64,000 bases of DNA, from positions 1 to 64,000 of the IMG/VR virus record IMGVR_UViG_3300047560_001569; one strand, given 5' to 3'. The translations under genes and the position numbers were made by a program. Under the pieces are notes generated by a model. The model did no database searches. It saw nothing but the letters and a program-made list of their open reading frames with translations, and was not told the DNA's origin. Shown here piece by piece: positions 11,961-61,213 of the stretch. Within the stretch, counting starts at the first letter, position 1. Each line of letters starts with the position of its first letter. This DNA comes from a virus.

Positions 11961-12428
11961 TTATTTAAGTCTGCCGTAGACAGCCATCATATTATCATGG
12001 GATTGATATAAAAATTCAGCAACCTTCAATCTGTCTTCAGGTTTAATTTTTTCCATAGACTCAACTAGCTTCTTAGCTACCGTGCCTTCAACAAACACCT
12101 TTTGACCATCACCGAAAGTGATGTCTGCACCGCCTTGTGTGCCGTGTTCGAGGATGTCAATTGGTTTTCTCAATTGAACCAGAATATTCATGTCTGCCTC
12201 TGGCTCAACTTCTTCCTTAATGTGCTTGATCTTAGCACCCATCTCTGACGCATCATCGAGATGTGTGTCTGTTAGATGCTCACCAACTTTAATGCCATGT
12301 GATAGGTTCTTACCAACTGCTTTCACATGATATTTCGTTTGGCCATTGACCTTGACTGGCGTTACATGCAACGCGTTGGGATGTAATTTAGGAGATGTTA
12401 CTTCTAAAATTTGTATTAATGATTTCAT
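11961..12428 (-). CDS. Probable virion-associated protein
   Basis: A 155-residue protein with the MKSLIQILEV start shared by this gene block, a His/Val-rich beta domain and a helical C-terminus ending SHDNMMAVYGRLK. No domain recognised. Adjacent, no gap, to the Cys-rich gene upstream. Confidence 0.6.
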   Translation of the reverse strand: MKSLIQILEVTSPKLHPNALHVTPVKVNGQTKYHVKAVGKNLSHGIKVGEHLTDTHLDDASEMGAKIKHIKEEVEPEADMNILVQLRKPIDILEHGTQGGADITFGDGQKVFVEGTVAKKLVESMEKIKPEDRLKVAEFLYQSHDNMMAVYGRLK

Positions 12429-14925: not shown

Positions 14926-16962
14926 TTAGGCTCCTACCTTTTTATTTGCTGACCAAGACCAATTACACGACCACCAATTAGCTTTCCACTTCGGTCCTGG
15001 ATTATCACAACCGTGACGTGCACGATATGCTCTACGACGATCTGGATCGTCGCGTTTAATTTCTAAGTTAGGATCACCAAACCCTAGCTTGATTATATTA
15101 CCTTTATCATTTTTTACATACACAGCAAACTTCTTTGGTCCACCAGTTGTACGGAATGGTTTATTCAACGTGCGTCCTTCGTTATCATTTTCAAGCAATA
15201 TATTCCATTGTTCTTCAGTCCACTCTTCATATATGTAATCCTCTTCAATTACACATTCGCTATTCGCGAATAGTGAACGAGAGAGCGCTTCAATAGATTC
15301 TACTAGTGATGGACTAACTGTATCTCTAACGCCACGATCCTCTGTTACTTTTCTAACATACTCTGTAGTCTTACGACGAATAATATCAGCACGTTTTCTG
15401 TATTTTGTTACTTCACTATCATCCATTGTATCTTTAATGTTATCGGCGTGATGGGCACGTGGTTGTGCAGCCATAATATCTTGTGGGTCAACTGTATCCA
15501 TATTGCGAGGTGTGCGCAAACCAGTTGACATGATACTTCTTAATGTGGGTCTTGTTGATTGTTCACGCAAATCGATATCTTCCTTGAATGCTTTACCGCC
15601 AGCAACATAAGAATTCAAACGATCAAATGCATACTGACTTGGTGTTTTACCTGGTGGCTTGTTGCTATTCCATGCATTTTTACCGCGATTGAATACTTGC
15701 AGTAGTGTTTGATAATTAATACCAGACGATTCAGCCTTCTCAACAATTGCTCTATTCTCTTTTTCTGTAATTACATCACCAATTAACTGATATGCTGCAG
15801 ATACAACCATACGTGATGTTTTGTATTTGTTACCAGTCGTTACAGATTGTAATCGACGTAACTCATCACCCTTCACTCTTGGTGCTATTTTAGCTGCTAT
15901 CCTTTTGATAGCACCCTTCTTACGCTCAACCATTTTATCGATAGCAATTTTCTGTGAAGCAGATAATTTGGTATAGTTTGTACCTTGGTCTCCGGCGAGA
16001 CGAGTGCGCAAGATGTTCTTTGCTTTCTTCATCGTGCGACGACTGAGAGCTACATTTTTTGCTAGACGACGGCGAGCAATCTCTCTTGCACGAGTCAACT
16101 TAGCTTTATTCTTTTTCATATTAACAGAGCGATGCATACGAGTAGTCATACCAACCACATTTTCATCGATCTGCTCTAAATCAATTTCCTCTTTTATTGC
16201 TTTAATATGATTAGCAATTTCTGTAGCATGTGGATGTAGTGCTTTTGGCAATCCAGCCTTAAACTTTGACATCTCACCTGCACGTGCATGCGCACGTAAC
16301 TTTGTACCAGACATGCCTTCTACACCAGGCGCATCAGGATCACGTTGGCCTGCTGATACTACCTTGATCGATTTGAAATTATATAATTTACCCTCTCCAG
16401 TACCATTATACTGGTGGAGTTTATTATGATATGCATCGACGCGATCTGAACCCGCAACCATCACTAAATGTTGATGACCAGCAGCGTGGAGTTTTGCAGC
16501 AGCTTGTAAAAATGATGGTTCATCTTTAGTCGAACCGTGAACTTTAGTACCCTTAGATACAACTTTATTGAGGTATCCAAGTTTAGCTTTTTGCGGAAGG
16601 GGATTATCAGACTTGCCTTCTGAATGGCTAGCAAAAATATGTGCCGTACTTCCATGCTCTTTAGCAACAGACTCTACTTTGTGGATTAATTTCTCGTGGC
16701 CGACAGTGGGAGGATTAAAACGGCCGAATGCCATCGTGGCTGTCTTTTCGTTTGCCTCGTTTACTGGTTTTTCTTGGGGGTTGATAACAACGTTATCGGC
16801 TGGATCACCAAGCATCGTTACTCCATCTTTTTGTTTGATGGGTTTTGGTTCAGCGGTTGTTTGTTCAGGGGATGGAGCAGGTGGCTGTGCACCGCTTTTA
16901 CCTAGCGATTGTACATCTTCGACGGACAACTCTCCGTCAAACGGATCTTCTCTTTTAATCAT
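14926..16962 (-). CDS. Large protein with nucleotidyltransferase domain and Cys-containing C-terminal domain
   Basis: A 678-residue multidomain protein. Residues 1-70 are Pro-rich linker. Residues about 75-260 form a cytidylyltransferase-type Rossmann domain: FGRFNPPTVGHEKLI holds the (T/H)xGH motif and GMSGTKLRAHA the (I/M)SxTxxR motif. The middle (265-560) is Arg/Lys-rich and helical. The last 100 residues hold IKRDDPDRRRAYRARHGCDN and the sequel PGPKWKANWWSC, a small conserved phage domain of unknown function. The NTase substrate is not predictable. A late octamer lies 48 bases upstream. Confidence 0.7.
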   Translation of the reverse strand: MIKREDPFDGELSVEDVQSLGKSGAQPPAPSPEQTTAEPKPIKQKDGVTMLGDPADNVVINPQEKPVNEANEKTATMAFGRFNPPTVGHEKLIHKVESVAKEHGSTAHIFASHSEGKSDNPLPQKAKLGYLNKVVSKGTKVHGSTKDEPSFLQAAAKLHAAGHQHLVMVAGSDRVDAYHNKLHQYNGTGEGKLYNFKSIKVVSAGQRDPDAPGVEGMSGTKLRAHARAGEMSKFKAGLPKALHPHATEIANHIKAIKEEIDLEQIDENVVGMTTRMHRSVNMKKNKAKLTRAREIARRRLAKNVALSRRTMKKAKNILRTRLAGDQGTNYTKLSASQKIAIDKMVERKKGAIKRIAAKIAPRVKGDELRRLQSVTTGNKYKTSRMVVSAAYQLIGDVITEKENRAIVEKAESSGINYQTLLQVFNRGKNAWNSNKPPGKTPSQYAFDRLNSYVAGGKAFKEDIDLREQSTRPTLRSIMSTGLRTPRNMDTVDPQDIMAAQPRAHHADNIKDTMDDSEVTKYRKRADIIRRKTTEYVRKVTEDRGVRDTVSPSLVESIEALSRSLFANSECVIEEDYIYEEWTEEQWNILLENDNEGRTLNKPFRTTGGPKKFAVYVKNDKGNIIKLGFGDPNLEIKRDDPDRRRAYRARHGCDNPGPKWKANWWSCNWSWSANKKVGA

Positions 16963-30642: not shown

Positions 30643-30966
30643 TCAAACTGGTCTAAAACTCTCACCACATCCACATCTATCACGCTCGTTAGGATTCTTG
30701 AACTCAAACCCCTCATTCAATCCGTTTCTAGCATAGTCGATTGTCATTCCTTTCAAGTATAATAAACTTTTAGGATCAACAATAACCGATACTTCATTAG
30801 TATTAAATACATTATCCTCAACATTTACCTGATCAACATATTCTAATACATATGCCATTCCAGAACAACCAGTAGTACGAACGCCAACTCGTACACCTAT
30901 TCCTTTGCCACGCTTTACTAGATGGTTGGATATTCTTTTTGCTGCTTGTGGTGTTATCTCAATCAT
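30643..30966 (-). CDS. A-type Fe-S carrier (IscA/HesB family)
   Basis: A 107-residue IscA-family protein with the three cluster-binding Cys: Cys34 (TTGCSGMAY), Cys98 and Cys100 (RCGCGESF). A-type carriers take Fe-S clusters from the scaffold to apo-proteins. It is the closer of two paralogues to E. coli IscA in its C-terminal CGCGESF. Overlaps the second carrier by four bases. Confidence 0.92.
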
Positions 30967-31280
30967 ACACTAAAAGATGATCCACATCCACAGGTCGTCT
31001 GTGCATTTGGATTGATAATTTTAAATTGACTACCAGTCAAATCATCAGTGTAATCGATTGTTGCTCCAGTTAAGTATTGCATACTCAATGCATCTGCTAC
31101 AACTGGTGCACCATTAATTTCAAAATCATCTTCATTCTGTACATCTTCCAACATGAATCCATATTGAAATCCTGAACAGCCGCCACCTTCAACATACACA
31201 CGAACCTTCAATCCGGGTTCATTTTCTTCTGCAATAATTTCTTGAATTTTTGCTACTGCCGATTCGGTAATTGTTAGCAT
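30963..31280 (-). CDS. A-type Fe-S carrier (ErpA-like)
   Basis: A 105-residue protein with Cys35 ([11 protein letters not shown]), Cys97 and Cys99 ([11 protein letters not shown]). The GGGCSGFxYxF block and long N-terminal acidic helix are ErpA-like. Overlaps iscU by seven bases. Two A-type carriers next to a scaffold mimic part of a bacterial isc operon. Confidence 0.92.
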
Positions 31281-31660
31281 GTTAGAGCAGCCTTTCTTTT
31301 ATAATCCGCTACTGCGGCTTTGATGGCGTCTTCGGCGAGGATTGAACAATGGATTTTGACTGGGGGGAGAGCAAGTTCTTCAGCAATCTCGCTATTACGT
31401 ATGGATCCTGCTTCCTCAAGTGTTCGACCTTTGACCCATTCTGTAACGAGGCTACTGCTGGCAATGGCTGACCCACAACCGTATGTTTTGAATCTTGCAT
31501 CTGTAATGATCCCGTCTTGTACTTTTATTTGTAATTTCATTACATCACCACAAGCGGGCGCTCCTACCATGCCTGTGCCTATACCTTCTTCATCTTTAGA
31601 AAATGAACCCACATTACGTGGGTTCTCGTAGTGATCAACAACTTTATCTGAATATGCCAT
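31274..31660 (-). CDS. iscU: Fe-S cluster scaffold IscU
   Basis: The 128-residue scaffold is complete: Cys37 with Asp39 ([11 protein letters not shown]), Cys62 ([11 protein letters not shown]), the HscA recognition motif LPPVK at 98-102 and His104-Cys105. IscU receives sulfur from a cysteine desulfurase (IscS) and builds [2Fe-2S] clusters. No iscS, hscA/B or fdx is in the window, so host partners would be needed; the intact LPPVK fits use of host HscA. Confidence 0.95.
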
Positions 31661-31679
31661 GATATCCTCCTACAAATAT

Positions 31680-32261
31680 TTAGTCTGGACCATATACGGC
31701 TTCGCGGTCTTTCATACCAACTTCACCACCTTCTTCTTTGATTCGTTTGATAACATCTTCAAATAGAATTGGCCTGTAATCTGTATGTTCAACACAAACA
31801 CAATGATAACGAGGATCAATTTCCCATTTGCCCCATATTTCAGCCATCACACGATTTGCATGAAGATGTCCGTGGATATTTGTACCGAAGCGACCAAGAC
31901 TTTCCGGATGTATAGGGATGTGACTCAATATCATTCCGTTCAATACATGGTATGCACGAAGTTCACGGAAGTGTTCCCGATACTCATCATCTCTAAAGAT
32001 GTCGTGATTACCACGAATCAATACTTTATCGCCATTGAGCCTACGCATAATACCCAAAGCTTTGCGGTTGATCACAACATCACCAAGGTGATATACTTTG
32101 TCTTTTGGTCGGACTGTTTCATTCCAACGCTTTACCATTTCCTCATCCATCTCATCAGCATTATCCCATGGACGGAGTTTAGTAACACCATCATTACGGG
32201 TGAACCTACACACACCAGTATGACCAAAGTGTGTATCGCTTACAAGGAATATAGCTGGCAT
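31680..32261 (-). CDS. Calcineurin-like phosphoesterase
   Basis: Start at ATG 32261 (193 residues). Motifs SDTHFGH, LGDVV, IRGNHD, LSHIPIH and IHGHLH are in order, as in small phage metallophosphoesterases. Substrate unknown. It lies directly upstream of iscU with 19 bases between, so probably in the same transcript. Confidence 0.88.
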   Translation of the reverse strand: MPAIFLVSDTHFGHTGVCRFTRNDGVTKLRPWDNADEMDEEMVKRWNETVRPKDKVYHLGDVVINRKALGIMRRLNGDKVLIRGNHDIFRDDEYREHFRELRAYHVLNGMILSHIPIHPESLGRFGTNIHGHLHANRVMAEIWGKWEIDPRYHCVCVEHTDYRPILFEDVIKRIKEEGGEVGMKDREAVYGPD

Positions 32262-32291
32262 CAATGTTTCCGAGAAAATCTAATAATTACA

Positions 32292-32729
32292 TTACGCATA
32301 TTGATAATTTACCGTGTTCGTATTTGTCCTGAACACACTAGCTCCATTTTTAAGATGGAATCGTCTTGCCATTTCAGTTGTAGGACTCAATGTAATGTAC
32401 CTATTAATATGTGAGTAGTTGTCACCGAGATATTGGCGAGACTTGATGAGTAAATCCCGACCAGCACCAGGTGTATAACTCCATATAGTATAGAACACTG
32501 CAATGTTAGGGTCAACTCCTACATCTTGGTATAGCGTCTCTACACTATCTGGCACATCCCTACAATAGGCAACACATACAATTGCTGTTGGTTGATTGTT
32601 CTCACCAAGAAGAACAAACACTTCTCTGCTAGAGGATATTCTCCAATCGGCAGGAATCTCCGGACGTACAGGGTCGTCTTTAATATATTCAATTAGCGGG
32701 TCAGTTAATGATTTTATAATATGTAGCAT
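32292..32729 (-). CDS. GNAT-like acetyltransferase family protein
   Basis: A 145-residue alpha/beta protein with AIVCVAYCRDVPDSV, FYTIWSYTPGAGRDLLI and the closing EMARRFHLKNGA, which resembles the GNAT fold ending (aRxFYek.GF) and is known as a conserved protein of aquatic T4-like phages. No acetyl-CoA loop of the classical kind is obvious, so activity is uncertain. Confidence 0.6.
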   Translation of the reverse strand: MLHIIKSLTDPLIEYIKDDPVRPEIPADWRISSSREVFVLLGENNQPTAIVCVAYCRDVPDSVETLYQDVGVDPNIAVFYTIWSYTPGAGRDLLIKSRQYLGDNYSHINRYITLSPTTEMARRFHLKNGASVFRTNTNTVNYQYA

Positions 32730-32814
32730 GATGTTCTTAGGAGTTAAATTTGGCTAAAATATTTAGCACAATGAACACCATTCGAATAAATATTATTACA
32801 AACTTATATAAAAA

Positions 32815-33003
32815 ATGTCAGCATTCGATCACGATACAGAGAATTTAAAACTTCTCTATCAATTCAGCAAACAAACATACGAGCCCAAATCATCTTGGAC
32901 GACTGGGACATGGGCTCTCGATCCCTTACATCAAAAACCAAAAGTAGAATTCAAACTCGACCCACTTCCACCACAGATCCAATTAAATTTAAGATTTAAG
33001 TGA
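32815..33003 (+). CDS. Possible plus-strand small protein
   Basis: A 62-codon frame, the only credible plus-strand gene in the window, in a stretch (32730-32988) with no minus-strand reading. The product (MSAFDHDTENLKLLYQF...) has a polar helical start and a Pro-rich tail PLPPQIQLNLRFK. No Shine-Dalgarno is visible; an AATAAATA late-like octamer precedes it at about 32785-32792. It overlaps the convergent gene at its 3' end by 15 bases. Confidence 0.5.
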   Translation: MSAFDHDTENLKLLYQFSKQTYEPKSSWTTGTWALDPLHQKPKVEFKLDPLPPQIQLNLRFK

Positions 33004-33225
33004 TCTACTCTTTTTCAGAGTTGGTTCATTAATCTTTTCAACCTCATGCGGTTCTGCAAACCGCTGAGGTATATGAAATACATCAAACGCGCCACCCCAT
33101 GTTATTGGTTTCCAATACTTACTAAGAATATTATTAATAACAACAATACCTATGCAAATAACAATGAAACCGAGCATAGTAAGAATCGACGCTGCAAGGA
33201 ATGTTGCTGATTGATCCATGTCCAT
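32989..33225 (-). CDS. Small membrane protein
   Basis: Start at ATG 33225 (GGAG seven bases upstream; ATG 33231 is also possible). The 78-residue protein has one long hydrophobic helix (ATFLAASILTMLGFIVICIG), then a cytosolic Trp/Pro stretch and basic tail. Resembles short membrane proteins in other aquatic T4-like phages. Last gene of the tRNA transcript. Confidence 0.7.
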   Translation of the reverse strand: MDMDQSATFLAASILTMLGFIVICIGIVVINNILSKYWKPITWGGAFDVFHIPQRFAEPHEVEKINEPTLKKSRSLKS

Positions 33226-33248
33226 AAACATATCTCCTAATTAAAATT

Positions 33249-33324
33249 TGGTACTCCGTGGGGGAATCGAACCCCTCCTTACCCGCGTGAAAGGCGAGTG
33301 TCCTAACCGATAGACGAACGGAGC
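33249..33324 (-). tRNA. tRNA-Glu (TTC), copy 1
   Basis: Full cloverleaf with anticodon loop CTTTCAC, D arm GTCTATCGGTTAGGAC, T arm GGGGTTCGATTCCCC and encoded CCA. Confidence 0.93.
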
Positions 33325-33337
33325 ACATATCTGGTTT

Positions 33338-33415
33338 TGGAGCAACGGGCTGGATTCGAACCAGCGGCTTTTGGGATTTGCAATCCCATGCATTGGGCCT
33401 CTCTGCCACCGTTGC
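33338..33415 (-). tRNA. tRNA-Cys (GCA)
   Basis: Cloverleaf with anticodon loop TTGCAAA on stem TGGGA/TCCCA, T arm GGTTCGAATCC, discriminator T (U73, the cysteine identity base) and encoded CCA. Confidence 0.93.
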
Positions 33416-33431
33416 AGTATCTAATTCATGT

Positions 33432-33460
33432 ATTATACGCAATTTATATATCAATGTCAA
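33432..33460 (-). promoter_or_regulatory. Perfect-consensus sigma70 promoter inside tRNA cluster
   Basis: Minus-strand TTGACA (33460-33455), 17-base spacer, TATAAT (33437-33432). Both boxes match the bacterial consensus completely. It starts just after the degenerate tRNA and drives tRNA-Cys, tRNA-Glu and probably the small membrane protein. Confidence 0.8.
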
Positions 33461-33463
33461 TTG

Positions 33464-33534
33464 TACCTTGTGACGGAATCGAACTGCCGTCTGCGCCGTG
33501 TAAACACACGGCCCTACCATTAGACGAACGAGGC
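33464..33534 (-). tRNA. Degenerate tRNA-like gene (Val TAC or other)
   Basis: The unit has an acceptor stem with a C:A mismatch, a D arm GTCTAATGGTAGGGC, and a T arm GGCAG/CCGTC with an A:C mismatch around TTCGATT. The anticodon arm is a palindrome whose best pairing leaves a 6- or 8-base loop; with a regular 7-base loop (TTTACAC) the anticodon is TAC (Val) but the closing pair is G:G. CCA is not encoded, unlike its neighbours. Possibly a decaying gene. Confidence 0.5.
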
Positions 33535-33537
33535 ATA

Positions 33538-33625
33538 TGGTGGAGGCTCTCCGATTCGAACAGAGAAGAGACAAAGCTAACAGATTTACAGTCTGCCCCC
33601 GACACCGTTACGGGACTAAACCTCC
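33538..33625 (-). tRNA. tRNA-Tyr (GTA), copy 1
   Basis: Class II tRNA with long variable arm, anticodon loop CTGTAAA, T arm CTGTTCGAATCGG and encoded CCA. Confidence 0.9.
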
Positions 33626-33635
33626 ACACTTTTTT

Positions 33636-33711
33636 TGGCTGGCCAACCTGGGCTCGAACCAGGGACACCTTGATTAACAGTCAAGTGCTCTACCAACTGA
33701 GCTATAGGCCA
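33636..33711 (-). tRNA. tRNA-Asn (GTT), copy 1
   Basis: Cloverleaf with D arm AGCTCAGTTGGTAGAGC, anticodon loop CTGTTAA, T arm CCTGGTTCGAGCCCAGG, discriminator G, encoded CCA. One T:T mismatch in the acceptor stem. Confidence 0.92.
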
Positions 33712-33716
33712 ATAAT

Positions 33717-33793
33717 TGGTTCCTCGACTTGGATTTGAACCAAGGACCAATGGATTATGAGTCCACTGCTCTAACCAACTGAGCTATCGAGGA
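33717..33793 (-). tRNA. tRNA with CAT anticodon (elongator Met, or Ile2 if lysidine-modified)
   Basis: Cloverleaf with acceptor TCCTCGA/TCGAGGA, anticodon loop CTCATAA, T loop TTCAAAT, encoded CCA. Lacks the initiator features (three G:C pairs in the anticodon stem, 1:72 mismatch). The 5' end is overlapped by the 3' end of the upstream CDS. Confidence 0.9.
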
Positions 33794-34035
33794 GTAATCT
33801 TTTTCTTTCTTAATTTCATTCCTATAAACGTACCACAAAAAGCTCCGATACCGGCTGGTATCAGCAACCAGTGATCTGTAGTATAGTTGATTACGGCTGT
33901 ACTTGCGACAACAAACACGATTACTGCCCATGAGCTGGCCAGCAATGGTTTATCATGTTCTACAGATTTCAAATAATGTGTATAAAACAAATCTGTAAAA
34001 AATAATGCAAGAAACGTAACAACCCAATCAACCAT
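33784..34035 (-). CDS. Small multispanning membrane protein
   Basis: Start at ATG 34035 with AAGGAG 11 bases upstream; a GTG at 34068 is an alternative. The 83-residue product has three predicted membrane helices (4-22, 30-50, 57-75) and a basic tail (KLRKKK). Resembles a short phage membrane-protein family. Its last codons and TAG stop lie within the first ten bases of the tRNA-CAT gene. Confidence 0.65.
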   Translation of the reverse strand: MVDWVVTFLALFFTDLFYTHYLKSVEHDKPLLASSWAVIVFVVASTAVINYTTDHWLLIPAGIGAFCGTFIGMKLRKKKITPR

Positions 34036-34074
34036 AGATTTTAAATCTCCTTTTACTTTCCTTACCACAAAACT

Positions 34075-34149
34075 TGGTGCCGACTATCGGATTCGAACTG
34101 ATGACCTATCGCTTACAAGGCGATTGCACTACCACTGTGCTAAGTCGGC
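34075..34149 (-). tRNA. tRNA-Thr (TGT)
   Basis: Cloverleaf with acceptor GCCGACT/AGTCGGC, anticodon loop CTTGTAA on ATCGC/GCGAT, T loop TTCGAAT, encoded CCA. Confidence 0.92.
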
Positions 34150-34153
34150 TAAT

Positions 34154-34231
34154 TGGTCGGAGTACAAGGATTCGAACCTTGGACCCTCTGGTCCCAAACC
34201 AGATGCGCTAGCCAGACTGCGCTATACTCCG
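34154..34231 (-). tRNA. tRNA-Pro (TGG)
   Basis: Cloverleaf with acceptor CGGAGTA/TACTCCG, anticodon loop TTTGGGA, T arm CAAGGTTCGAATCCTTG, encoded CCA. Overlapped by the 3' end of the upstream CDS. Confidence 0.93.
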
Positions 34232-34621
34232 AATTTTGGTGGTGATGGATGGAATCGAGCCATCGACCGACTGCGTATGAATTGGTAAGATAATTTCACC
34301 AAGAGTATGATCCATACTCCAAGTATCCCAGTAATCAATCTTTACATACTTTCTTGGCAGTTTCTCTTTTTGTTTATCAATCCAAAGCAGAAACTTATAC
34401 AACCACGTTTCATGGCGATCTCTATCCCATTTAGTGATATCGCCAACCTGTGGTTCTGGTTCTACACTACCATGCGCTAACCATTCACCAAAATTATGAA
34501 CACGATCAGCAGGATGCTCAAATCCAAATTCATCTTTTTCTTTTGGAACCCAGAACATCAGCTTTTCAGCTAACTGATATGGTCCAAACCAGTTGCGAGG
34601 TTTTCCAATCCAAACTTTCAT
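34208..34621 (-). CDS. Conserved phage protein with tRNA-derived C-terminus
   Basis: Start at ATG 34621. Residues 1-113 match a widespread phage family I recognise by MKVWIGKPRNWFGPYQLAEK, FGEWLAHG, TWLYKFLLWI and DYWDTWSMDHTLGEIILP; function unknown. After GEIILPI the frame runs into sequence that is plainly the 3' half of a tRNA (34237-34274) and then into tRNA-Pro, so the last 25 residues are not native. The gene has been cut by recombination with a tRNA and may be partly degraded. Confidence 0.75.
   Translation of the reverse strand: MKVWIGKPRNWFGPYQLAEKLMFWVPKEKDEFGFEHPADRVHNFGEWLAHGSVEPEPQVGDITKWDRDRHETWLYKFLLWIDKQKEKLPRKYVKIDYWDTWSMDHTLGEIILPIHTQSVDGSIPSITTKIRSIAQSG
34237..34274 (-). 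pseudogene. tRNA 3'-half remnant
   Basis: Perfect T arm (GATGG/CCATC around CTCGATT), the 3' acceptor strand CATCACC, discriminator A and CCA, preceded by GCAGTC-GGTC like an anticodon-stem 3' side plus variable loop. No matching 5' half follows; instead coding sequence is joined on. Confidence 0.75.
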
Positions 34622-34821
34622 CACTCACTCCCAATTTTGTTGATCAGAGTTTTATTCATTTCCATAGATCTTTCAAGCATTGTATCCAAGTGATCAATTC
34701 GATCTTCATAAAATTTAATCAAATCTTGAATGCGTTTTTCATGCTCAGCTTCACGCTCTTTCTTTTCAGCGGATAGTGCTTCAGCAACTGCTTTCCAATC
34801 TTCTTCATTGTCCCAAGGCAT
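34621..34821 (-). CDS. Small coiled-coil protein
   Basis: Start at ATG 34821 after AAGGAGAAGTAT. The 66-residue protein (MPWDNEEDWKAVAEALSAEK...) is a charged helix. Its TGA overlaps the next ATG (TGATG). Similar short acidic coiled coils occur in phages; no function known. Confidence 0.7.
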   Translation of the reverse strand: MPWDNEEDWKAVAEALSAEKKEREAEHEKRIQDLIKFYEDRIDHLDTMLERSMEMNKTLINKIGSE

Positions 34822-34838
34822 ATACTTCTCCTTAAAGG

Positions 34839-34913
34839 TGGCTCCACAGGCAGGGATCGAACCTACGACCAATTGATTAACAGTCAACTGCACTACCGCT
34901 GTGCTACTGTGGA
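34839..34913 (-). tRNA. tRNA-Asn (GTT), copy 2
   Basis: Cloverleaf with acceptor TCCACAG/CTGTGGA, anticodon loop CTGTTAA, discriminator G, encoded CCA. The acceptor and D arms differ strongly from copy 1, so this is not a recent tandem copy. Confidence 0.92.
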
Positions 34914-34950
34914 ATATAAACTTGAAAGTTCCGATACTACCCATCGTCAC

Positions 34951-35097
34951 TTACAACCGTTGGGAAAGAGGTACAGCTTTCGCAAACATTTCCATTTGTT
35001 CTGGCGGTCTCAAGGGGTAACGATCCCCTTCTTCATGCGTGACAGGCATGCGTGCGTCCATGAACACTTTGAAACCAAATTGGTGCAGGGCTTCCAC
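34951..35097 (-). CDS. Possible small ORF or gene fragment between tRNAs
   Basis: A 48-codon frame from GTG 35097 (or ATG at MDARM, 13 codons later) to TAA, product ending EEGDRYPLRPPEQMEMF and a further dozen residues. Composition looks protein-like but no start has a Shine-Dalgarno sequence. Between it and tRNA-Tyr lie two hairpins (CCTTGA/TCAAGG at 35132-35150 and a GAAA-capped stem). May be a remnant. Confidence 0.3.
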   Translation of the reverse strand: MEALHQFGFKVFMDARMPVTHEEGDRYPLRPPEQMEMFAKAVPLSQRL

Positions 35098-35158
35098 CTG
35101 CTGCTAATCAAACCTTTCGGTGATTAATCTGCCTTGATCTATCCTCAAGGACTTTTAT

Positions 35159-35251
35159 TGGTGGAGGCAGTTGGAGTCGAACCAACAATGTTTACCACGA
35201 GGGAACGGATTTACAGTCCGCTGCAGAACACGCCATATCTACAATGCCTCC
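35159..35251 (-). tRNA. tRNA-Tyr (GTA), copy 2
   Basis: Class II tRNA, acceptor GGAGGCA/TGCCTCC, large D loop, anticodon loop CTGTAAA on GCGGA/TCCGT, long variable arm, T arm GTTGGTTCGACTCCAAC, encoded CCA. Confidence 0.88.
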
Positions 35252-35259
35252 AAAAATTT

Positions 35260-35383
35260 CCATTAGTTTTGCTGACTGCACTATTTGCTATGCTCAACGG
35301 AATTGCTAGCTAGACGTACCGTTTATGTACATAGTTACTCAGGCGTGATCAAGCCCATGGCTTACAATCAGCAAAACTAATGG
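35260..35383 (-). ncRNA. Long-stem non-coding element A
   Basis: Perfect 16-base inverted repeat, 35260-35275 with 35368-35383, enclosing 92 bases that contain no reading frame but several short hairpins. Its first three bases in the transcript are the CCA of tRNA-Glu copy 2, and it ends nine bases before tRNA-Tyr copy 2. It may be an RNA in its own right or a processing element between tRNAs. Confidence 0.55.
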
Positions 35384-35456
35384 TAGTCGGTGCGGGAATC
35401 GAACCCAGCCTTACTGCCGTGAAAGGGCAGTGTCCTAACCGATAGACGAACCGACC
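35381..35456 (-). tRNA. tRNA-Glu (TTC), copy 2
   Basis: Cloverleaf with acceptor GGTCGGT/ACCGACT, anticodon loop CTTTCAC, D arm as in copy 1, encoded CCA. The acceptor and T stems differ from copy 1. Confidence 0.93.
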
Positions 35457-35608
35457 AAAGTGCAGAGGAAGCCCCCACCCAACGCATCTCTACAGTATCA
35501 TTCTCCCAACGATACCCCTTACGTGGGGATTCCAGACGTAACTGGTAACTCCCCAATACCCCATGCTTGCGAATCGACACAAGACTCATAGAGGATTTCA
35601 GAACTACT

Positions 35609-35637
35609 ATTATACTACATATAAAATTGCAAGACAA
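35609..35637 (-). promoter_or_regulatory. Sigma70-like promoter between tRNA-Asp and tRNA-Glu
   Basis: Minus-strand TTGTCT (35637-35632), 17-base spacer, TATAAT (35614-35609). The 150 bases downstream to tRNA-Glu hold no convincing gene; they include a CCCC/GGGG hairpin near 35514-35527 and a 24-45 codon open frame of low credibility. Confidence 0.6.
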
Positions 35638-35645
35638 TACTTTTT

Positions 35646-35719
35646 TGGCGTCCCGTGAGAGATTCGAACTCCTATCAACGGCGTGACAAGCCGCTATACT
35701 AACCATTATACTATGAGAC
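35646..35719 (-). tRNA. tRNA-Asp (GTC)
   Basis: Cloverleaf with anticodon loop TTGTCAC on GCGGC/GCCGT, T loop TTCGAAT, discriminator G, encoded CCA. The acceptor stem has one A:C mismatch and one wobble. Confidence 0.88.
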
Positions 35720-35724
35720 CAAAT

Positions 35725-35809
35725 TGGTGGAGAATCAGGGATTCGAACCCCGTATACCTGAGGTGGAAGATTTACAGTCTCCTGAAGTCGCCAATGCTTC
35801 TCATTCTCC
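35725..35809 (-). tRNA. tRNA-Tyr (GTA), copy 3
   Basis: Class II tRNA, acceptor GGAGAAT/ATTCTCC, anticodon loop CTGTAAA on GGAGA/TCTTC, long variable arm, T loop TTCGAAT, encoded CCA. First tRNA of the cluster in transcription order. Confidence 0.88.
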
Positions 35810-35903
35810 ATATAGAAACACACTAATGGTTTTTCCCCGTATACAGGTAAATTTCCTCCACCAAAAGGACATCCAGCGCTAGATGTTAGTGTGTTTCTAT
35901 ATG
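35809..35903 (-). ncRNA. Long-stem non-coding element B
   Basis: Perfect 18-base inverted repeat, 35809-35826 with 35886-35903, enclosing 59 bases with a CATCTAGC/GCTGGATG hairpin. The 3' arm runs directly into the first base of tRNA-Tyr copy 3, so the element and the tRNA must be processed apart or fold in competition. Confidence 0.55.
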
Positions 35904-35905
35904 AA

Positions 35906-36056
35906 CCATTTATTTAGTGCTATCGCGCCTATTTGTCAACAAATTAGCTAAATCTGACAAGCGAATAGCGGTTATATCAGGACCTGTTCCTCGCACAGTT
36001 AGGCCCGCATAGTATACACGTCTGCACACGATACCCTGATAGCACTAAACAAATGG
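35906..36056 (-). ncRNA. Long-stem non-coding element C
   Basis: A 19-base inverted repeat with one G:T wobble, 35906-35924 with 36038-36056, enclosing 113 bases with internal hairpins (TTGTCA/TGACAA among them). It is separated from element B by two bases. No reading frame. Confidence 0.55.
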
Positions 36057-36255
36057 TGTAGGCTACGTCTTTCCATCTTCGCCCCTACATGAGTTGTTAC
36101 CCTGTCCATCCCATTTATCCGGTACCTGTGTGCAGTTGGGATTCTGCCTATCAGAGTCTGAGTGGGTTACACTCGCTAACGGTTTTCTGCCACCGGATCT
36201 CTATCGTTAATCAAACGCTACTTTAACGGAAGTAGTAACGGGATTCTTTTGAACT
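36057..36255 (-). ncRNA. Structured non-coding leader D of the tRNA transcript
   Basis: About 200 bases without a gene. On the minus strand they contain CTACTT/AAGTAG, ATCCGGT/ACCGGAT (long-range, about 70 bases apart), GAGTG/CACTC, GCAG/CTGC and GTAGG/CCTAC pairings, which fit into one multi-branched fold. It begins just after a sigma70-like promoter. No known RNA family was recognised. Confidence 0.45.
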
Positions 36256-36261
36256 GCGCCC

Positions 36262-36290
36262 AGTATACCTCTGTTTACATATTCCAGCAA
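36262..36290 (-). promoter_or_regulatory. Sigma70-like promoter of the tRNA/ncRNA cluster
   Basis: Minus-strand TTGCTG (36290-36285), 17-base spacer, TATACT (36267-36262). It lies between the transporter terminator and the non-coding elements. Confidence 0.5.
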
Positions 36291-36317
36291 CTAGCTATTA
36301 CTAACCCATAAACAAAA

Positions 36318-36345
36318 AACCCTGGAGTCTTTCGAGTCCAGGGTT
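36318..36345 (-). terminator. Intrinsic terminator after the transporter gene
   Basis: Stem AACCCTGGA/TCCAGGGTT (36318-36326 with 36337-36345), with TTTTTTG following on the minus strand. Confidence 0.9.
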
Positions 36346-36368
36346 CATTGAGTGACTATTTTTAGTCT

Positions 36369-37004
36369 CTATGTCCCCTGCTTTGCCTCGTCTAATTTAT
36401 TTTGCAAATAATTCAACAAGACACCATATGCCGGCAATATTACTAATAAACTAACAACAATCTTAGTAATACTTTGGTTTGTTGCAACGATGTGCCAATT
36501 ATTTGACATGAATTCGTCTTTACCTCCAGCAAATGCTGTGAAGAAGAAAACATACGTATCAAAGAATGTAGACACAACTGAACTTAATGTAGGTGCGATC
36601 CACCACTGAGGGTACTTCTCACGGAAGTATTGGAATACATACACATCAAGTAAATTGCTAACAAAGTATGCTGTACCAGAACCTAATCCAATACGGAATG
36701 CTACCGATTCAGGAGCACCACCCGCTAGCACCACAAGAATGCTAACAACAATTGCTGGAATAAACGCTAAGCCAATCACTGCACGACCCAACTGTTTACC
36801 TAAAAGGCGAACAGTCAAGTCAGTAGCAACAACAACCAACGGAAATGTGAACGCCGCTGCTGCCAAAGGATAACCGAGTATTTCAAATTTGAATTGAACT
36901 AGCCAGTTGCTAAGAGCAATAACAAATACATGAAACGCCATTATCTTATAGGCTAATGAACGATCAACACCAGATAATACTTTATCCAAAAGATTGTTAA
37001 ACAT
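36369..37004 (-). CDS. yhhQ: Queuosine-precursor transporter family protein (YhhQ/VUT)
   Basis: The 211-residue membrane protein has six predicted helices and the family blocks FPLVVVATDLTVRLLGKQLG, GTAYFVSNLLDVYVF and SSVVSTFFDTYVFFFTAFAG (conserved Asp residues). YhhQ imports the 7-deazaguanine bases preQ0/preQ1. It fits the queD, queE, folE and TGT-like genes elsewhere in the window. Ends at a strong terminator. Confidence 0.85.
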   Translation of the reverse strand: MFNNLLDKVLSGVDRSLAYKIMAFHVFVIALSNWLVQFKFEILGYPLAAAAFTFPLVVVATDLTVRLLGKQLGRAVIGLAFIPAIVVSILVVLAGGAPESVAFRIGLGSGTAYFVSNLLDVYVFQYFREKYPQWWIAPTLSSVVSTFFDTYVFFFTAFAGGKDEFMSNNWHIVATNQSITKIVVSLLVILPAYGVLLNYLQNKLDEAKQGT

Positions 37005-37014
37005 AGTTTATATC

Positions 37015-37557
37015 TTAGAAACTAAAACCAACGCCTAAACCATAAGCGTTCTCTTTAATGTCTTGGTATGACTTGCTCAAGTTAAAATTAACAGCAACGC
37101 CCTTTGCGACTGGAACAGAGTATGTACCAAATGCAACAGTTTGATGTGTCATGTTAGCTTCTGTGCTACTAACACGTGTCTTGGCGCCCACCAAGGCATA
37201 ACCTGGACCAACTGGTAAACCAGTTGTTGCACCAATCAAACTATAACGGTAGTCGCTATTCTTAGCGCCATTAGCACCATTGTCGAATCCTACACCAACG
37301 AAAGGTGTAAACCCACCGATAGACTTACCAGCAGTAGTTTCCAAGCTGTTATACATTCCACCATTCGATGAAACGCTTGTGCGGCTCTGCAAACCCAATT
37401 GGATACCACCGACTTCCTTGCCTGCACGAACATACTGAGCTGTGCTGTCTGCATAGCCTTGTTTGCTCTTCACGTGGTCGATATCGACGGTAACATAATC
37501 AGCAGCATATGCTGCAGCAGATAATGCAACTAATGTTGCGATTGCGGTTTTCTTCAT
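37015..37557 (-). CDS. Outer-membrane beta-barrel protein
   Basis: The 180-residue protein has a signal peptide (cut after AAAYA, about residue 18) and a mature part of alternating beta strands ending in the terminal Phe (GVGFSF) needed for BAM recognition; size fits an eight-stranded barrel. A phage-made barrel could change the surface receptor (superinfection exclusion) or permeability; no specific family was recognised. Directly followed by the YhhQ-type transporter gene (10 bases apart). Confidence 0.8.
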   Translation of the reverse strand: MKKTAIATLVALSAAAYAADYVTVDIDHVKSKQGYADSTAQYVRAGKEVGGIQLGLQSRTSVSSNGGMYNSLETTAGKSIGGFTPFVGVGFDNGANGAKNSDYRYSLIGATTGLPVGPGYALVGAKTRVSSTEANMTHQTVAFGTYSVPVAKGVAVNFNLSKSYQDIKENAYGLGVGFSF

Positions 37558-37604
37558 TTAAACTCCTTAATTGAAAGAATAAGTTTGGTTGAGGTCAAAC
37601 TTTG

Positions 37605-50565: not shown

Positions 50566-52277
50566 GCTGATATCCTACTAAAGTTTTTATGCTTCTCAAA
50601 CTTAATCATATTTTCAAACTTATCCATTAGCTGATCAGTCTTATGGCTAATAACAAATACATTCGAATCACCAACAATACTTTGGATAATCTTAATCAAC
50701 TCATCACCACCTTGTACATCTAATGAACTATCGAATACCTCATCCATTATCAATAGGTTGGTGCTTGCACTATTACGTAACTTAGCAACAGCGCGCCAAG
50801 CGAACAACAAAGCCAAATCAATACGGCTTTTCTCGCCTTCACTAAAGGAGTCGTATGTGAATTCATCTCTAAATCTCGATTTAATTGTTTCTTCAAAACC
50901 TTCATTCAACTCAAAATTAACAAAGAAATCCATTGCAGCCAAGTACTTGTTAATTAGTTTATTAATTACAGGAACATACTGTTTAATGATTTTTGTTTTG
51001 ATTCCTGTATCTTTTAATAAGACAGCAGCAATATCATATACTTGCTTATCTTTAGCTAACTCTTCTTTCTGAGCAATCGCACTTCTCAATGCTTTTTTAA
51101 GAGAATCTATCTCTTCATTATTAGCATCAATCTGAGTTGTGTTTTGTGTCAGGTCCGTGATCTCTTTCTCGATAGTCTTAATGAACCCATTCCAAGTTCT
51201 GCACTGTACGAGAAGGTCGGATACCTCCCTGTTCTTGTTGGAAATCGTAGATGCGACATTATTAATTTCGGCCAATCGACTGTTAATATTATCCAGTTCG
51301 ACCACGATCTTTTCTCTGCCCGCTTCGATTTCGTCAATCTGGCTATTGCTTTTTGCAAGGATCTCACTCTTGTGCTCGTGTGCAATCCCCTGACGGCAAG
51401 TGGGACAGTCATTATGCAAAGTGAAGAATTGCGCTTCTTTACGGATCTTGTCCAATTTAAGATCCACTTGTCTTGCAATGTCCCTAATTTTCTCCAACCG
51501 AGACCGTACTTTGTCTTGGTCGTTAATACTGTTATTGTGCGAGATGACTTCATCTTGTAATGTTTGGACTTGCTGATTAGCTCCATCAATCTGCTCCTTT
51601 AAACTCTCCACTTGTTGTTTCTTTTGATTGACCAATTCGTCAGTGTTACGCTGCAACGATTCGATGTGCTTTTTATAAAGCTCAATCTTCTCACCATTAG
51701 ATCGAATAGCATGATCTACATCGCCAGTCTTAATCCTATTGAGAGCAACCTTATCTTTCAAAAGACCGTTCATCGTAGAGAAGATACCAATATCTAACAA
51801 GTCTTCAATAATCTCTCTACGATGAGCGGTAGGTAGTTGCATGAAGGGGATAAAAGATGCACTACCTAAAATAACTATCTGTGCAAAAGACTTTTGATTT
51901 AGTTTTAAAATCTGAGTCTCAAGCATTGTTTGATATTCTTTTGAATCGGCATTCTGATCAATCATTACACCATCACAGAAAATATCAAATACGTTTGGTT
52001 TGATCCCACGTATTATTTTATATTGTTTCTTACCAATACTAAACTCCAATTCTACAATCGCAGCTTTTGCATTTATTGAATTGATTAATTGGTTCTTATT
52101 GATCTTCCGAAACGGCTTACCATACATTGCGAACGATAATGCGTCCAACATTGTAGATTTACCCGCTCCATTCTCACCGACGATAAGAGTAGTCTTGTGC
52201 TTATCGAACTGGATTTCTGTAAACGCATTTCCCGTACTAAGAAAGTTGCGCCATCTTATACACTTAAAATAAATCAT
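50562..52277 (-). CDS. 46: Recombination endonuclease subunit (gp46, Rad50/SbcC-like)
   Basis: The 571-residue SMC-type ATPase has Walker A GENGAGKST at 34-42, coiled coils, the zinc hook CPTC near residue 296 and the signature/Walker B region FSEGEKSRIDLALLFAW and LLIMDEVFDSSLD. With gp47 it resects ends for recombination. Confidence 0.95.
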   Translation of the reverse strand: MIYFKCIRWRNFLSTGNAFTEIQFDKHKTTLIVGENGAGKSTMLDALSFAMYGKPFRKINKNQLINSINAKAAIVELEFSIGKKQYKIIRGIKPNVFDIFCDGVMIDQNADSKEYQTMLETQILKLNQKSFAQIVILGSASFIPFMQLPTAHRREIIEDLLDIGIFSTMNGLLKDKVALNRIKTGDVDHAIRSNGEKIELYKKHIESLQRNTDELVNQKKQQVESLKEQIDGANQQVQTLQDEVISHNNSINDQDKVRSRLEKIRDIARQVDLKLDKIRKEAQFFTLHNDCPTCRQGIAHEHKSEILAKSNSQIDEIEAGREKIVVELDNINSRLAEINNVASTISNKNREVSDLLVQCRTWNGFIKTIEKEITDLTQNTTQIDANNEEIDSLKKALRSAIAQKEELAKDKQVYDIAAVLLKDTGIKTKIIKQYVPVINKLINKYLAAMDFFVNFELNEGFEETIKSRFRDEFTYDSFSEGEKSRIDLALLFAWRAVAKLRNSASTNLLIMDEVFDSSLDVQGGDELIKIIQSIVGDSNVFVISHKTDQLMDKFENMIKFEKHKNFSRISA

Positions 52278-53332
52278 TCAGTACTCAAGGCTTCGTGGTA
52301 AAGGTCTCGCATCAAAGTATCCAACCGTTGACGGTCACCTTGGAATTGCGTTTGGTCAATATACTTATTAAGTATTGTCAGGGTATCCTCAGCTTCATTA
52401 ACGATATCCTCATCAGCTTCCAAATCCAAATGAAAATGGTCCTCCACAACTTGGATGTCAACGACATTAAATTTTTCCAACTTATCAATTACCATATCAA
52501 ACCAAGCTGGGTTGTTCTTGCTACGCACAATCAGCTTAACAATACAATCTCTATACATCTCATAATCAATATCGACTGTTTGTTCCATGGTCTTTGATGT
52601 ATCATCATACAGTATTTTATGGAACATCGTGAAAGGATTACGTATAAACTCCATCGTATTAGTATCGGTATCGTATATGTGGAACCCTTTTATATCATTA
52701 AAATCGGACCACGTAATTTCATATGGCGTACCAAGATAGTGTATATTATTATTATACGATTTGTGGTGGAAATGTCCGGATAATACTAGCGGTAAACGAC
52801 GGAACACACTAACATCTAATCCCTCATCACACACAGCACCGCGGTACATCTCAAACCCAGTAATTTCGAAATGACCGACAACAACATCAGCATCGGTAGT
52901 TGCTATTGCATCCAAACATTGTTTTTCATTTTCCGGACAAATCCAAGGAACAAGTAAGAACTTTTTATCTTCGAAATCAATCTCTAAAGGTGAATTGACA
53001 ACATTGATATTAGTATACCCATCCAACAATAAGTCTAACGAATTGACATCGTTGGTGTTCTTGTAGTATGTGTCATGGTTACCAACCAATGCCCACGTTG
53101 TATATTCTTGATTGAGAGGCTCTAACAAATACTCGCGCCCATGCTTAAGCGATTGGAAGTTGATATATTTCCGACGATCAAACATATCACCTAATTGAAT
53201 AACATGAAGTATGTTATGTTCTCTTAGATAGGGAAAAAATACTTCATCATAAAATCGCTTAAAAAATGCATGGAAATGTAAGTTATCATTCCGTGCTCCA
53301 ATATGCGTATCTCCAAGTAAACAAACCTTCAT
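52274..53332 (-). CDS. 47: Recombination nuclease subunit (gp47, Mre11/SbcD-like)
   Basis: The 352-residue phosphoesterase has LGDTHIGA, LGDMFDRR, VGNHDTY and SGHFHHKS. Works with gp46; start overlap of four bases with gene 46. Confidence 0.95.
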   Translation of the reverse strand: MKVCLLGDTHIGARNDNLHFHAFFKRFYDEVFFPYLREHNILHVIQLGDMFDRRKYINFQSLKHGREYLLEPLNQEYTTWALVGNHDTYYKNTNDVNSLDLLLDGYTNINVVNSPLEIDFEDKKFLLVPWICPENEKQCLDAIATTDADVVVGHFEITGFEMYRGAVCDEGLDVSVFRRLPLVLSGHFHHKSYNNNIHYLGTPYEITWSDFNDIKGFHIYDTDTNTMEFIRNPFTMFHKILYDDTSKTMEQTVDIDYEMYRDCIVKLIVRSKNNPAWFDMVIDKLEKFNVVDIQVVEDHFHLDLEADEDIVNEAEDTLTILNKYIDQTQFQGDRQRLDTLMRDLYHEALSTE

Positions 53333-53340
53333 GTTACCCT

Positions 53341-53950
53341 TTACTTTTCTTCGTCAATATCAATACCTTCCACTTCAATATCTACATGACCATCAACCTC
53401 ATCTTCCGATAAAATGTCTTCTTCGATAAACTTCTCTACGCCTTTTTTAGCTCTCTTCTTTTTCTTAGATAGCAGATTATCTTCAAAACTCTTAATGAAG
53501 TCAAACATATTATCATTATCGAGGTCTATATGTGTAGGAGTAAACTCTTGCTCACTAAACTCACCTTGCTCATACAACTCATTAAGAAGCATTGAGTTTT
53601 CAAGTGTCTTATGTTTAATATAAGTTTGCTTTTTCTCTTTCAAGATTCTACGCAAGAAAGCGTAATATATGATTTGGGTAAAGTAAGCAAAGGGGTTGTT
53701 TGATTTAGAAGGATCGAAATTATCAATATAACATATACAGTTTTCAATACCATCAGAAACCATATCATCTCTATATGAATAGTTAATGAAATTTGGTTTC
53801 GTTGATAGTCTGTTCGCTATCATTAGTATACACTCTCCAACATAATTAGGAATGCGAGGACGCTCTGTGTTGTGGAGCTTCTATTACTGATTCCCTATAT
53901 GCGACTATACATTTGTATAGTTCTTTATTATCTACATAATGCGTTGCCAT
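53341..53950 (-). CDS. 55: Late-transcription sigma factor gp55, split across two frames
   Basis: From ATG 53950 (AAGGGA upstream) a frame reads HYVDNKELYKCIVAYRESVI, which matches the N-terminus of gp55 but stops at 53846. The rest continues in the +1 frame, open from 53880: RPRIPNYVGECILMIANRLS, then NFINYSYRDDMVSDGIENC and FDPSKSNNPFAYFT, the gp55 core, to 53341. Joining the frames near 53850-53880 gives a full gp55 homologue of about 200 residues. An ATG at 53823 with GGAG could also start a shortened 160-residue form. gp55 directs host RNA polymerase to TATAAATA late promoters. True +1 frameshift, mutation or sequence error cannot be told apart here. Confidence 0.82.
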
Positions 53951-53983: not shown

Positions 53984-54012
53984 ACTATACCCACATAATA
54001 TAAAAGGGTCAA
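53984..54012 (-). promoter_or_regulatory. Sigma70-like promoter for gene 55
   Basis: Minus-strand TTGACC (54012-54007), 17-base spacer, TATAGT (53989-53984), 34 bases before ATG 53950. Confidence 0.7.
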
Positions 54013-54014
54013 CA

Positions 54015-54428
54015 CTAATTAAGAGGTCCGTTAACTTCTATTCGCTCAAGAATATCAGAGTATGCATCATCATCTAATGGCTGCTTAGATTTCCTGCTAC
54101 TAATACTATGCAACTCATCGTCAATATGTTGATCGATAGTCGTCCTATAATTATCTAATGCATAGAGATAGTATTCAACCACAGACGCACGTGGTTCAAC
54201 AATGTGAGTGATATCTCCGATGTCAAAAGTAAATGTGGTTTGACTAGCAAACGGCATGTATCTACTGATACTCATCGTCGGCATTGGTTGAAAGGAAACA
54301 AACTTGTAGTTAATCTGCAACGGATCGACTATACGAACGAGTCCTTTACGTTTTAATTCTTCTGTCTGTGCATCCACATCTCCCAACAACTCAGTACCAT
54401 TGCTAAGTTTTACTAACGATAACGCCAT
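54015..54428 (-). CDS. Conserved T4-like phage protein
   Basis: A 137-residue protein with SLVKLSNGTELLGDVD, DPLQINYKF and SISRYMPFASQT, an LSm-like small beta barrel pattern seen in conserved proteins of aquatic T4-like phages. Ends in an acidic helical tail. Located two bases after uvsW. Confidence 0.7.
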   Translation of the reverse strand: MALSLVKLSNGTELLGDVDAQTEELKRKGLVRIVDPLQINYKFVSFQPMPTMSISRYMPFASQTTFTFDIGDITHIVEPRASVVEYYLYALDNYRTTIDQHIDDELHSISSRKSKQPLDDDAYSDILERIEVNGPLN

Positions 54429-60015: not shown

Positions 60016-60282
60016 TTACCTAAATGCAATTGAAACTGCTTTAACATCCGTTCCAGTATCAACTTGTATTGTGTCTGACGGACTTTTGTAAATGATCATG
60101 TCTTGGCCGAATTGAATTGTTATTGTACCAAGAGTAGTACCACCAGTATCTTTCTTTGTGATAACTCTAGCAGTCGTTGCATTTGTGTTCAACAACCTGA
60201 CTAAAGAAGCACCATTAACTGTGTTGGCCGTTGTAGGTAATGTTATCTCTGCTGCTTTGGGACTGATTACAAAATCACTCAT
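60016..60282 (-). CDS. Small virion-type protein
   Basis: Start at ATG 60282 after GAGGAG (88 residues). A beta-rich Thr-rich protein (VITKKDTGGTTLGTITIQF) between genes 21 and 20; size and strand pattern suit a head decoration or core protein, but no family is claimed. Overlaps the upstream gene by eight bases. Confidence 0.65.
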   Translation of the reverse strand: MSDFVISPKAAEITLPTTANTVNGASLVRLLNTNATTARVITKKDTGGTTLGTITIQFGQDMIIYKSPSDTIQVDTGTDVKAVSIAFR

Positions 60283-60937
60283 CTTGTGTCTCCTCAGCAA
60301 GTATGTTCTGCACGGTGTCTAACAACTGCTCAAACTTCTCGTCTGATTCGAGCATGTCGATAAATTGTTCGCGAGACTGATCATCTTCTAAACTCTCATA
60401 CATTGCTTCGAGCATTGTAGTGATTGCCTCGACCTCTTGATTGTCTTGCTCTGCTATTACTGCCTCTAATATATCATCAAATTGCTCTACTTGTTCAGCT
60501 ACTTTTTTAGCTTGTGCAGTAGCAATTGCCATTTTCTTTTGCATGCTATATTCTGGATGATCCCGCTCAATCGCTTGTGCAATCTCTTCGCGCTTTTTCT
60601 TTTCTGCAAATGTCAATACTTTTTCATTAACATCTTCTGATTCTTTCGCACTATATCCGTGCCTAGCTGCTTTACGATCGTGATATTTAATATTTGATGC
60701 TTTGAATAGCTTATCATCATTACCATTCCGATCAGCAATCTTTTGTACTTCGTGATCGTCGATAAATTCTTGATCGCCCAATGTAGCAGCAGAAGGACCA
60801 CCCTTTTCAGAAGTTACGGTATTATCTTTATAAAATTTTTTCGGACCGACTTCCCCAGGTTTACGTGTACCCTGGTCGTGCTTGGGGCCTCGGAAGCCCC
60901 TCTCCATTTCGTTAAGCAGACTGTTCAGCGTTTTCAT
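60275..60937 (-). CDS. Probable prohead core protein
   Basis: A 220-residue charged protein, basic N-terminal half (GFRGPKHDQGTRKPGEVGPK, KYHDRKAARHGYSAKE) and very acidic helical C-terminal half. Position in the 20-21 interval and composition resemble internal prohead proteins removed by gp21. Confidence 0.6.
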   Translation of the reverse strand: MKTLNSLLNEMERGFRGPKHDQGTRKPGEVGPKKFYKDNTVTSEKGGPSAATLGDQEFIDDHEVQKIADRNGNDDKLFKASNIKYHDRKAARHGYSAKESEDVNEKVLTFAEKKKREEIAQAIERDHPEYSMQKKMAIATAQAKKVAEQVEQFDDILEAVIAEQDNQEVEAITTMLEAMYESLEDDQSREQFIDMLESDEKFEQLLDTVQNILAEETQDE

Positions 60938-61202
60938 GTGATTCCTCAGACTCTGTATTTGTTTCGTCTCCTACTGCCACTGTTTCAACATTGGTTCCGT
61001 CTTCGACGTTTTCATCATCTTCAACTTCAATATCTATCTCTTCTTGACCGAACATTGATCTAGCAACTTCGATCTTACGAGCTTGGATAGCATCATATAC
61101 TCGTTGACCGACTAACTGATCAAATGCAGATGAAATATTCACTGCATCCTTGTTCATCGCAAAGTTAACAATATCTGTAGGTGTGTAAGTAGGTGTTGTC
61201 AT
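60912..61202 (-). CDS. Prohead core protein (gp67/68-like)
   Basis: A 96-residue protein, helical N-terminus (IVNFAMNKDAVNISSAFDQL, KIEVARSMFG) followed by a strongly acidic tail, the typical look of gp67/gp68 core proteins next to gene 20. Confidence 0.7.
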   Translation of the reverse strand: MTTPTYTPTDIVNFAMNKDAVNISSAFDQLVGQRVYDAIQARKIEVARSMFGQEEIDIEVEDDENVEDGTNVETVAVGDETNTESEESHENAEQSA

Positions 61203-61213
61203 ATTCTCTCCAT

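What the first reader, a model, noticed from the sequence alone, without database searches (positions are those of the whole stretch)
53341..53950. Late sigma factor gene 55 needs a +1 frameshift
The N-terminal residues typical of gp55 are read from ATG 53950 in one frame and the rest in the +1 frame; both overlap between 53846 and 53880. A promoter and Shine-Dalgarno precede the first frame. Either programmed frameshifting controls the late switch, an internal start at 53823 makes a short sigma, or the sequence has an indel.
Basis: seen in the sequence. Interest (0 to 1): 0.75.

Follow-up and report, generated by a model that had tools for sequence, protein, structure and literature searches.

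The report
Broken reading frame in phage gene
In this T4-like phage fragment the gene for the late sigma factor gp55 is split by a small net loss of DNA between its first two helices, which none of the relatives examined shares; this is most likely an assembly error or a recent mutation, not a new way of controlling the late genes.

Summary
Gene 55 (T4-type late sigma factor, minus strand, 53950-53341) is read in two frames: a 34-codon leader (ATG 53950 to TAA 53848-53846), then the rest in the +1 frame, open from 53880. At least 78 of 80 IMG/VR relatives (two not scored by the motif test) and all 60 sampled phage records carry the gene as one frame. The eight nearest relatives all have 5 more bases in the loop between helices 1 and 2. 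The spacing across that loop is 33 residues in 77 of 78 relatives and 34 in one; even a perfect +1 slip here gives 31. The overlap still encodes TERPRIPNYVGEC in the downstream frame, with mostly synonymous differences from close relatives, so the switch must lie at about 53878-53865, not at the UCC-UAA stop. No prfB-like slippery site or Shine-Dalgarno stimulator, no 8-base anticodon loop and no unusual RNA fold was found. Among 58 genes compared, gp55 is the only one with a frame break. An internal start at 53823 would remove helix 1 and half of helix 2. Artefact and real mutation cannot be separated without the reads.

The parts
53846..53950 (-). Leader reading frame: N-terminal part of gp55 (helix 1), 34 codons and TAA stop (53848-53846); true homology to gp55 ends near codon 25 (53876)
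   Evidence: (phrog_234 E=1.5e-4)
53341..53880 (-). Downstream reading frame: rest of gp55 from the helix 1-2 loop to the stop; 85% identical to the G001 gp55 over 179 residues
53865..53878 (-). Site of the frame break: net 5 bases shorter than all eight nearest relatives, in the loop between helix 1 and helix 2
   Evidence: alignment A1; HMM scores of all possible switch points, best at codons 25-28; spacing
53821..53823 (-). Internal ATG (53823-53821 on the minus strand), candidate start of a 160-aa short form; lies mid helix 2. The GGAGAG before it is dictated by the conserved codons for Gly-Glu
53984..54012 (-). Sigma-70-like promoter match TTGACC-17-TATAGT upstream of gene 55 (consensus match only)
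52274..53332 (-). Downstream neighbour, gp47-like recombination nuclease subunit (name from T4 knowledge and synteny), intact
54015..54428 (-). Upstream neighbour, small conserved protein also found beside gp55 in relatives, intact

Best explanation
This is an ordinary T4-type late sigma factor gene (gp55) whose frame is broken in this record by a small net loss of bases in the loop between helices 1 and 2. The break is either an assembly or sequencing artefact of a metagenomic contig (more likely, because gp55 is an essential core gene and the rest of the gene shows strong purifying selection) or a recent real mutation in a defective variant. It is not a regulatory device. Shown: the break, its position, its absence in relatives, the intact rest of the gene. 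Inferred: that the sequenced population mostly carries an intact copy.
For: Of 80 relatives, 78 passed an automatic single-frame test and the other two (L034, L078) did not match the motif used; L078 reads as one frame by eye. All 60 phage records sampled across 2,266 match in one piece. The eight nearest relatives all have 5 more bases at one spot. Spacing between two invariant tyrosines is 33 residues in 77/78 relatives and 34 in one, 32 in T4 (from the alignment); here it is 94 nt. In the overlap and the codons up to 53826, differences from L003, L005 and L006 are all synonymous in the downstream frame, while the upstream frame would change or meet stops. Downstream of 53823, 50-62 codons differ synonymously and 6-9 nonsynonymously from the four nearest. 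Of 58 genes (12,865 codons) compared with G001, only gp55 has a frame break. Without gene 55 T4 late genes are not transcribed (PMC2988020). In a survey of 1,106 prokaryotic genomes, unclustered frameshifts validated by BLASTp were expected to be sequencing errors (PMC3711429).
Against: A net change of 5 bases outside a homopolymer is not a typical short-read error, and the rest of the window shows no other frame break, so assembly quality is good.
Confidence: 0.87

Rival explanations
1. Programmed +1 ribosomal frameshifting makes full-length gp55 and sets the timing of the late switch, with an architecture like bacterial prfB (short leader, the rest in +1).
For: The leader stop UCC-UAA, read +1, does continue into NYVGEC, and the short-leader layout resembles prfB (RF2 layout in PMC5009743). 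Every in-frame +1 fusion between codons 23 and 34 scores well against the gp55 profile (300-314 bits).
Against: The arrangement is found in no relative examined. A switch at UCC-UAA scores 13.8 bits worse than at codon 25, and the overlap is conserved in the downstream frame, which a shift at the stop would not preserve. At codons 25-28 there is no stop or rare codon: CCA is the commonest Pro codon and AGA is not rare. No prfB-like CUU-UGA site with a Shine-Dalgarno stimulator was seen; RNA fold z=-1.1. The product would be 2 residues short in a loop of conserved length.
Confidence: 0.05
2. The phage uses a short gp55 started at ATG 53823, by reinitiation after the leader stop about 22 bases upstream.
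For: ATG 53823 has a GGAGAG stretch about 9 bases upstream and lies just after the leader stop. The 160-aa ORF is intact and conserved.
Against: The predicted model of a relative puts the matching residue (Met45) inside helix 2 (residues 37-50), so helix 1 (8-28) and half of helix 2 of the sigma-R2 fold would be missing. The missing part contains invariant residues Y5, V6, N8, P33, Y38, G40 and C42, and the T4 review notes absolute conservation of aromatic residues there (PMC2988020). Met at this place is not conserved across relatives, and GGAGAG merely encodes Gly-Glu.
Confidence: 0.06
3. A phage tRNA that reads four bases (for example CCAC as proline) restores the frame.
For: The window encodes 12 tRNAs, one of them tRNA-Pro(UGG), and CCA-C lies at the break.
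Against: All 12 tRNAs have ordinary 7-base anticodon loops, tRNA-Pro(UGG) included; CCA is the commonest Pro codon and is read normally in the other genes.
Confidence: 0.01

Closest known systems
T4 gp55 late sigma factor (PDB 7d7c/7d7d; PHROG phrog_234)
   Same: Sequence match (phmmer E=1.6e-17 for relative L005), fold match of the L001 model (Foldseek rank 1, E=1.9e-6)
   Different: Frame broken in the helix 1-2 loop in this record only; T4 and the relatives examined are single-frame
gp55 of IMG/VR contigs L001-L006
   Same: 86-89% identical over 157-160 residues, same neighbours: gp47-like and small upstream protein
   Different: Intact single frame with 5 more bases at the break site
Bacterial prfB (RF2) +1 programmed frameshift
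   Same: Short leader in frame 0 with the bulk of the protein in +1
   Different: No CUU-UGA site, no Shine-Dalgarno stimulator, no conservation of the arrangement, switch point not at the stop codon

Membership tests
T4-type late sigma factor gp55 | Profile match to phrog_234 | tested here: met
   (E=1.4e-41 for the downstream ORF; leader E=1.5e-4)
T4-type late sigma factor gp55 | Sigma-R2-like helices H1-H4 plus helix-loop-helix, as in PDB 7d7c | tested here: met
   Met for relative L001: model helices 8-28, 37-50, 62-75, 88-130, 148-169 and Foldseek match to 7d7c; for the window only by homology
T4-type late sigma factor gp55 | One continuous reading frame | tested here: not met
T4-type late sigma factor gp55 | C-terminal sliding-clamp-binding motif | not tested
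   C-terminus is acidic and of low confidence in the model; motif not examined
Programmed +1 frameshift (prfB type) | Frame arrangement conserved among relatives | tested here: not met
Programmed +1 frameshift (prfB type) | Slippery codon before a slow or stop codon with a Shine-Dalgarno-like stimulator | tested here: not met
   Sequence read directly; codon use; switch point scores
Programmed +1 frameshift (prfB type) | Trans-frame product made in the cell | not testable with these tools
   Needs reporter assay or mass spectrometry

The most novel reading that the evidence does not exclude
A lineage-specific +1 frameshift at about 53878-53865 makes full-length gp55 at low efficiency and so delays late transcription: a recoding switch on a T4-type late sigma factor.
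Probability: 0.04. Interest if true: 0.75.

Novelty: not a real feature. Interest (0 to 1): 0.12.

Why it matters
If the frameshift were programmed it would put the late switch of a T4-like phage under translational control. The evidence instead shows how an isolated frame break in a metagenomic contig can look like recoding, and which comparisons (frame conservation in the overlap, loop-length conservation, other genes in the same contig, tRNA loops) weigh on the matter without reads.

Tried and rejected
Megablast against phage records found nothing. Four-base decoding by a phage tRNA was considered and rejected. A shift at UCC-UAA was considered and rejected on overlap conservation and profile score. 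A recoding stimulator in the RNA was looked for; the fold is unremarkable. Other genes flagged as possibly broken (9.1-9.4 kb, 10.2-11.4 kb, 60.3-61.1 kb) proved to be alternative starts, in-frame length differences, a short C-terminal difference or an overlapping ORF; flagged genes at 11.9-12.4, 13.7 and 21.9 kb are length differences or weak partial matches to divergent homologues, judged from the match coordinates only. A second gp55 was sought and not found, but the record is only a fragment. The paper searches found no report of a gp55 frameshift.

Full report
Observation. On the minus strand, ATG 53950 begins MATHYVDNKELYKCIVAYRESVIEAPQHRASSHS and stops at TAA 53848-53846. The remainder of gp55 reads in the +1 frame from 53880 to 53341. 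The gp55 profile phrog_234 matches the two pieces separately, with no other copy in the 67,626-base record that contains the window.

Relatives. A search of IMG/VR with the downstream ORF returned 80 loci, the best 86-89% identical. In 78 of them a motif test found the N-terminal helix and the following core in one frame; two loci did not match the motif, of which L078 is a single frame by eye. In the phage collection 2,266 records match a full-length relative; the 60 sampled evenly down the ranking all match in one piece, 59 of them from residue 1-7. In a DNA alignment the eight nearest relatives all have 5 bases that the window lacks, at one place. The distance between the conserved tyrosines of YVDN and YVGEC is 33 residues in 77 of 78 relatives, 34 in one, and 32 in T4 by the alignment. 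In the window it is 94 nt, so a +1 slip would give 31.

Where the switch lies. In the 15 codons before ATG 53823, all differences from L003, L005 and L006 are synonymous in the downstream frame, whereas in the upstream frame the same differences change residues or make stops. More distant relatives also show some amino-acid changes there. Scoring every possible +1 fusion against a profile of 48 intact relatives gives the best values at codons 25-28 (312.9-313.7 bits) and the worst at UCC-UAA (299.9 bits); the short form from 53823 scores 246.0 and an intact relative 322.5. So the frame most likely changes at about 53878-53865, and the overlap up to the leader stop was until recently read in the downstream frame.

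Mechanism. At that place there is no stop codon, no rare codon and no +1 site that I recognise: CCA is the commonest Pro codon and AGA is used 67 times in 21 genes. Nothing like the prfB signal precedes UCC-UAA. All 12 phage tRNAs have 7-base anticodon loops. The RNA around the site folds no better than shuffles (z=-1.1). The remaining explanation is an indel. Among 58 genes (12,865 codons) compared with the 234,864-base relative G001, gp55 is the only one with a frame break, so the contig is otherwise well assembled; this neither proves nor excludes a local artefact.

Consequence. AlphaFold on 48 relatives (first row L001; mean pLDDT 75.7 overall, above 90 for residues 11-110 by blocks of ten) gives helices 8-28, 37-50, 62-75, 88-130 and 148-169, and the best PDB match is T4 gp55, 7d7c chain F (E=1.9e-6). 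The published structure describes H1-H4 as the sigma-R2 homology domain (PMC7892883). The break lies at the end of helix 1 and in the loop before helix 2, and the internal ATG is within helix 2. That paper also notes that the disordered N-terminal tail of T4 gp55 is poorly conserved and absent in many homologues; by the alignment and the model, the segment at issue here is the ordered helix 1, not that tail (my reading). Gene 55 is required for T4 late transcription (PMC2988020), so a phage with this sequence as its only gp55 would probably be defective (inference).

Verdict. The frame break is present in the record, and the programmed-frameshift reading is not supported. An assembly artefact or a recent mutation explains all the data; the reads would separate the two. 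A survey of frame transitions in prokaryotic genomes expected isolated, BLASTp-validated cases to be sequencing errors (PMC3711429). Novelty is given as 'not a real feature' because no functional device is supported; the broken frame itself may still be a true mutation.

Noticed in passing
window 33249-35809 (-): Cluster of 12 tRNA genes (Glu x2, Cys, Asn x2, Met, Thr, Pro, Asp x2, Tyr x2).
   Followed up: partly
window 14926-16962 (-): 678-aa ORF about twice as long as its 344-aa G001 homologue, with roughly 200 extra residues between two matching parts.
   Followed up: no
window 11961-12428 (-): 155-aa protein lacking, in frame, a large middle part of its 287-aa G001 homologue.
   Followed up: no
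window 30700-37600: Only one short match to the first 80 kb of relative G001 across this stretch, which includes the tRNA cluster.
   Followed up: no
window 60275-61205 (-): The start of the 220-aa ORF (60937) overlaps a second conserved ORF (homology 61205-60915) in another frame, as in G001; tblastn across it looks like a frame break but is not one.
   Followed up: yes
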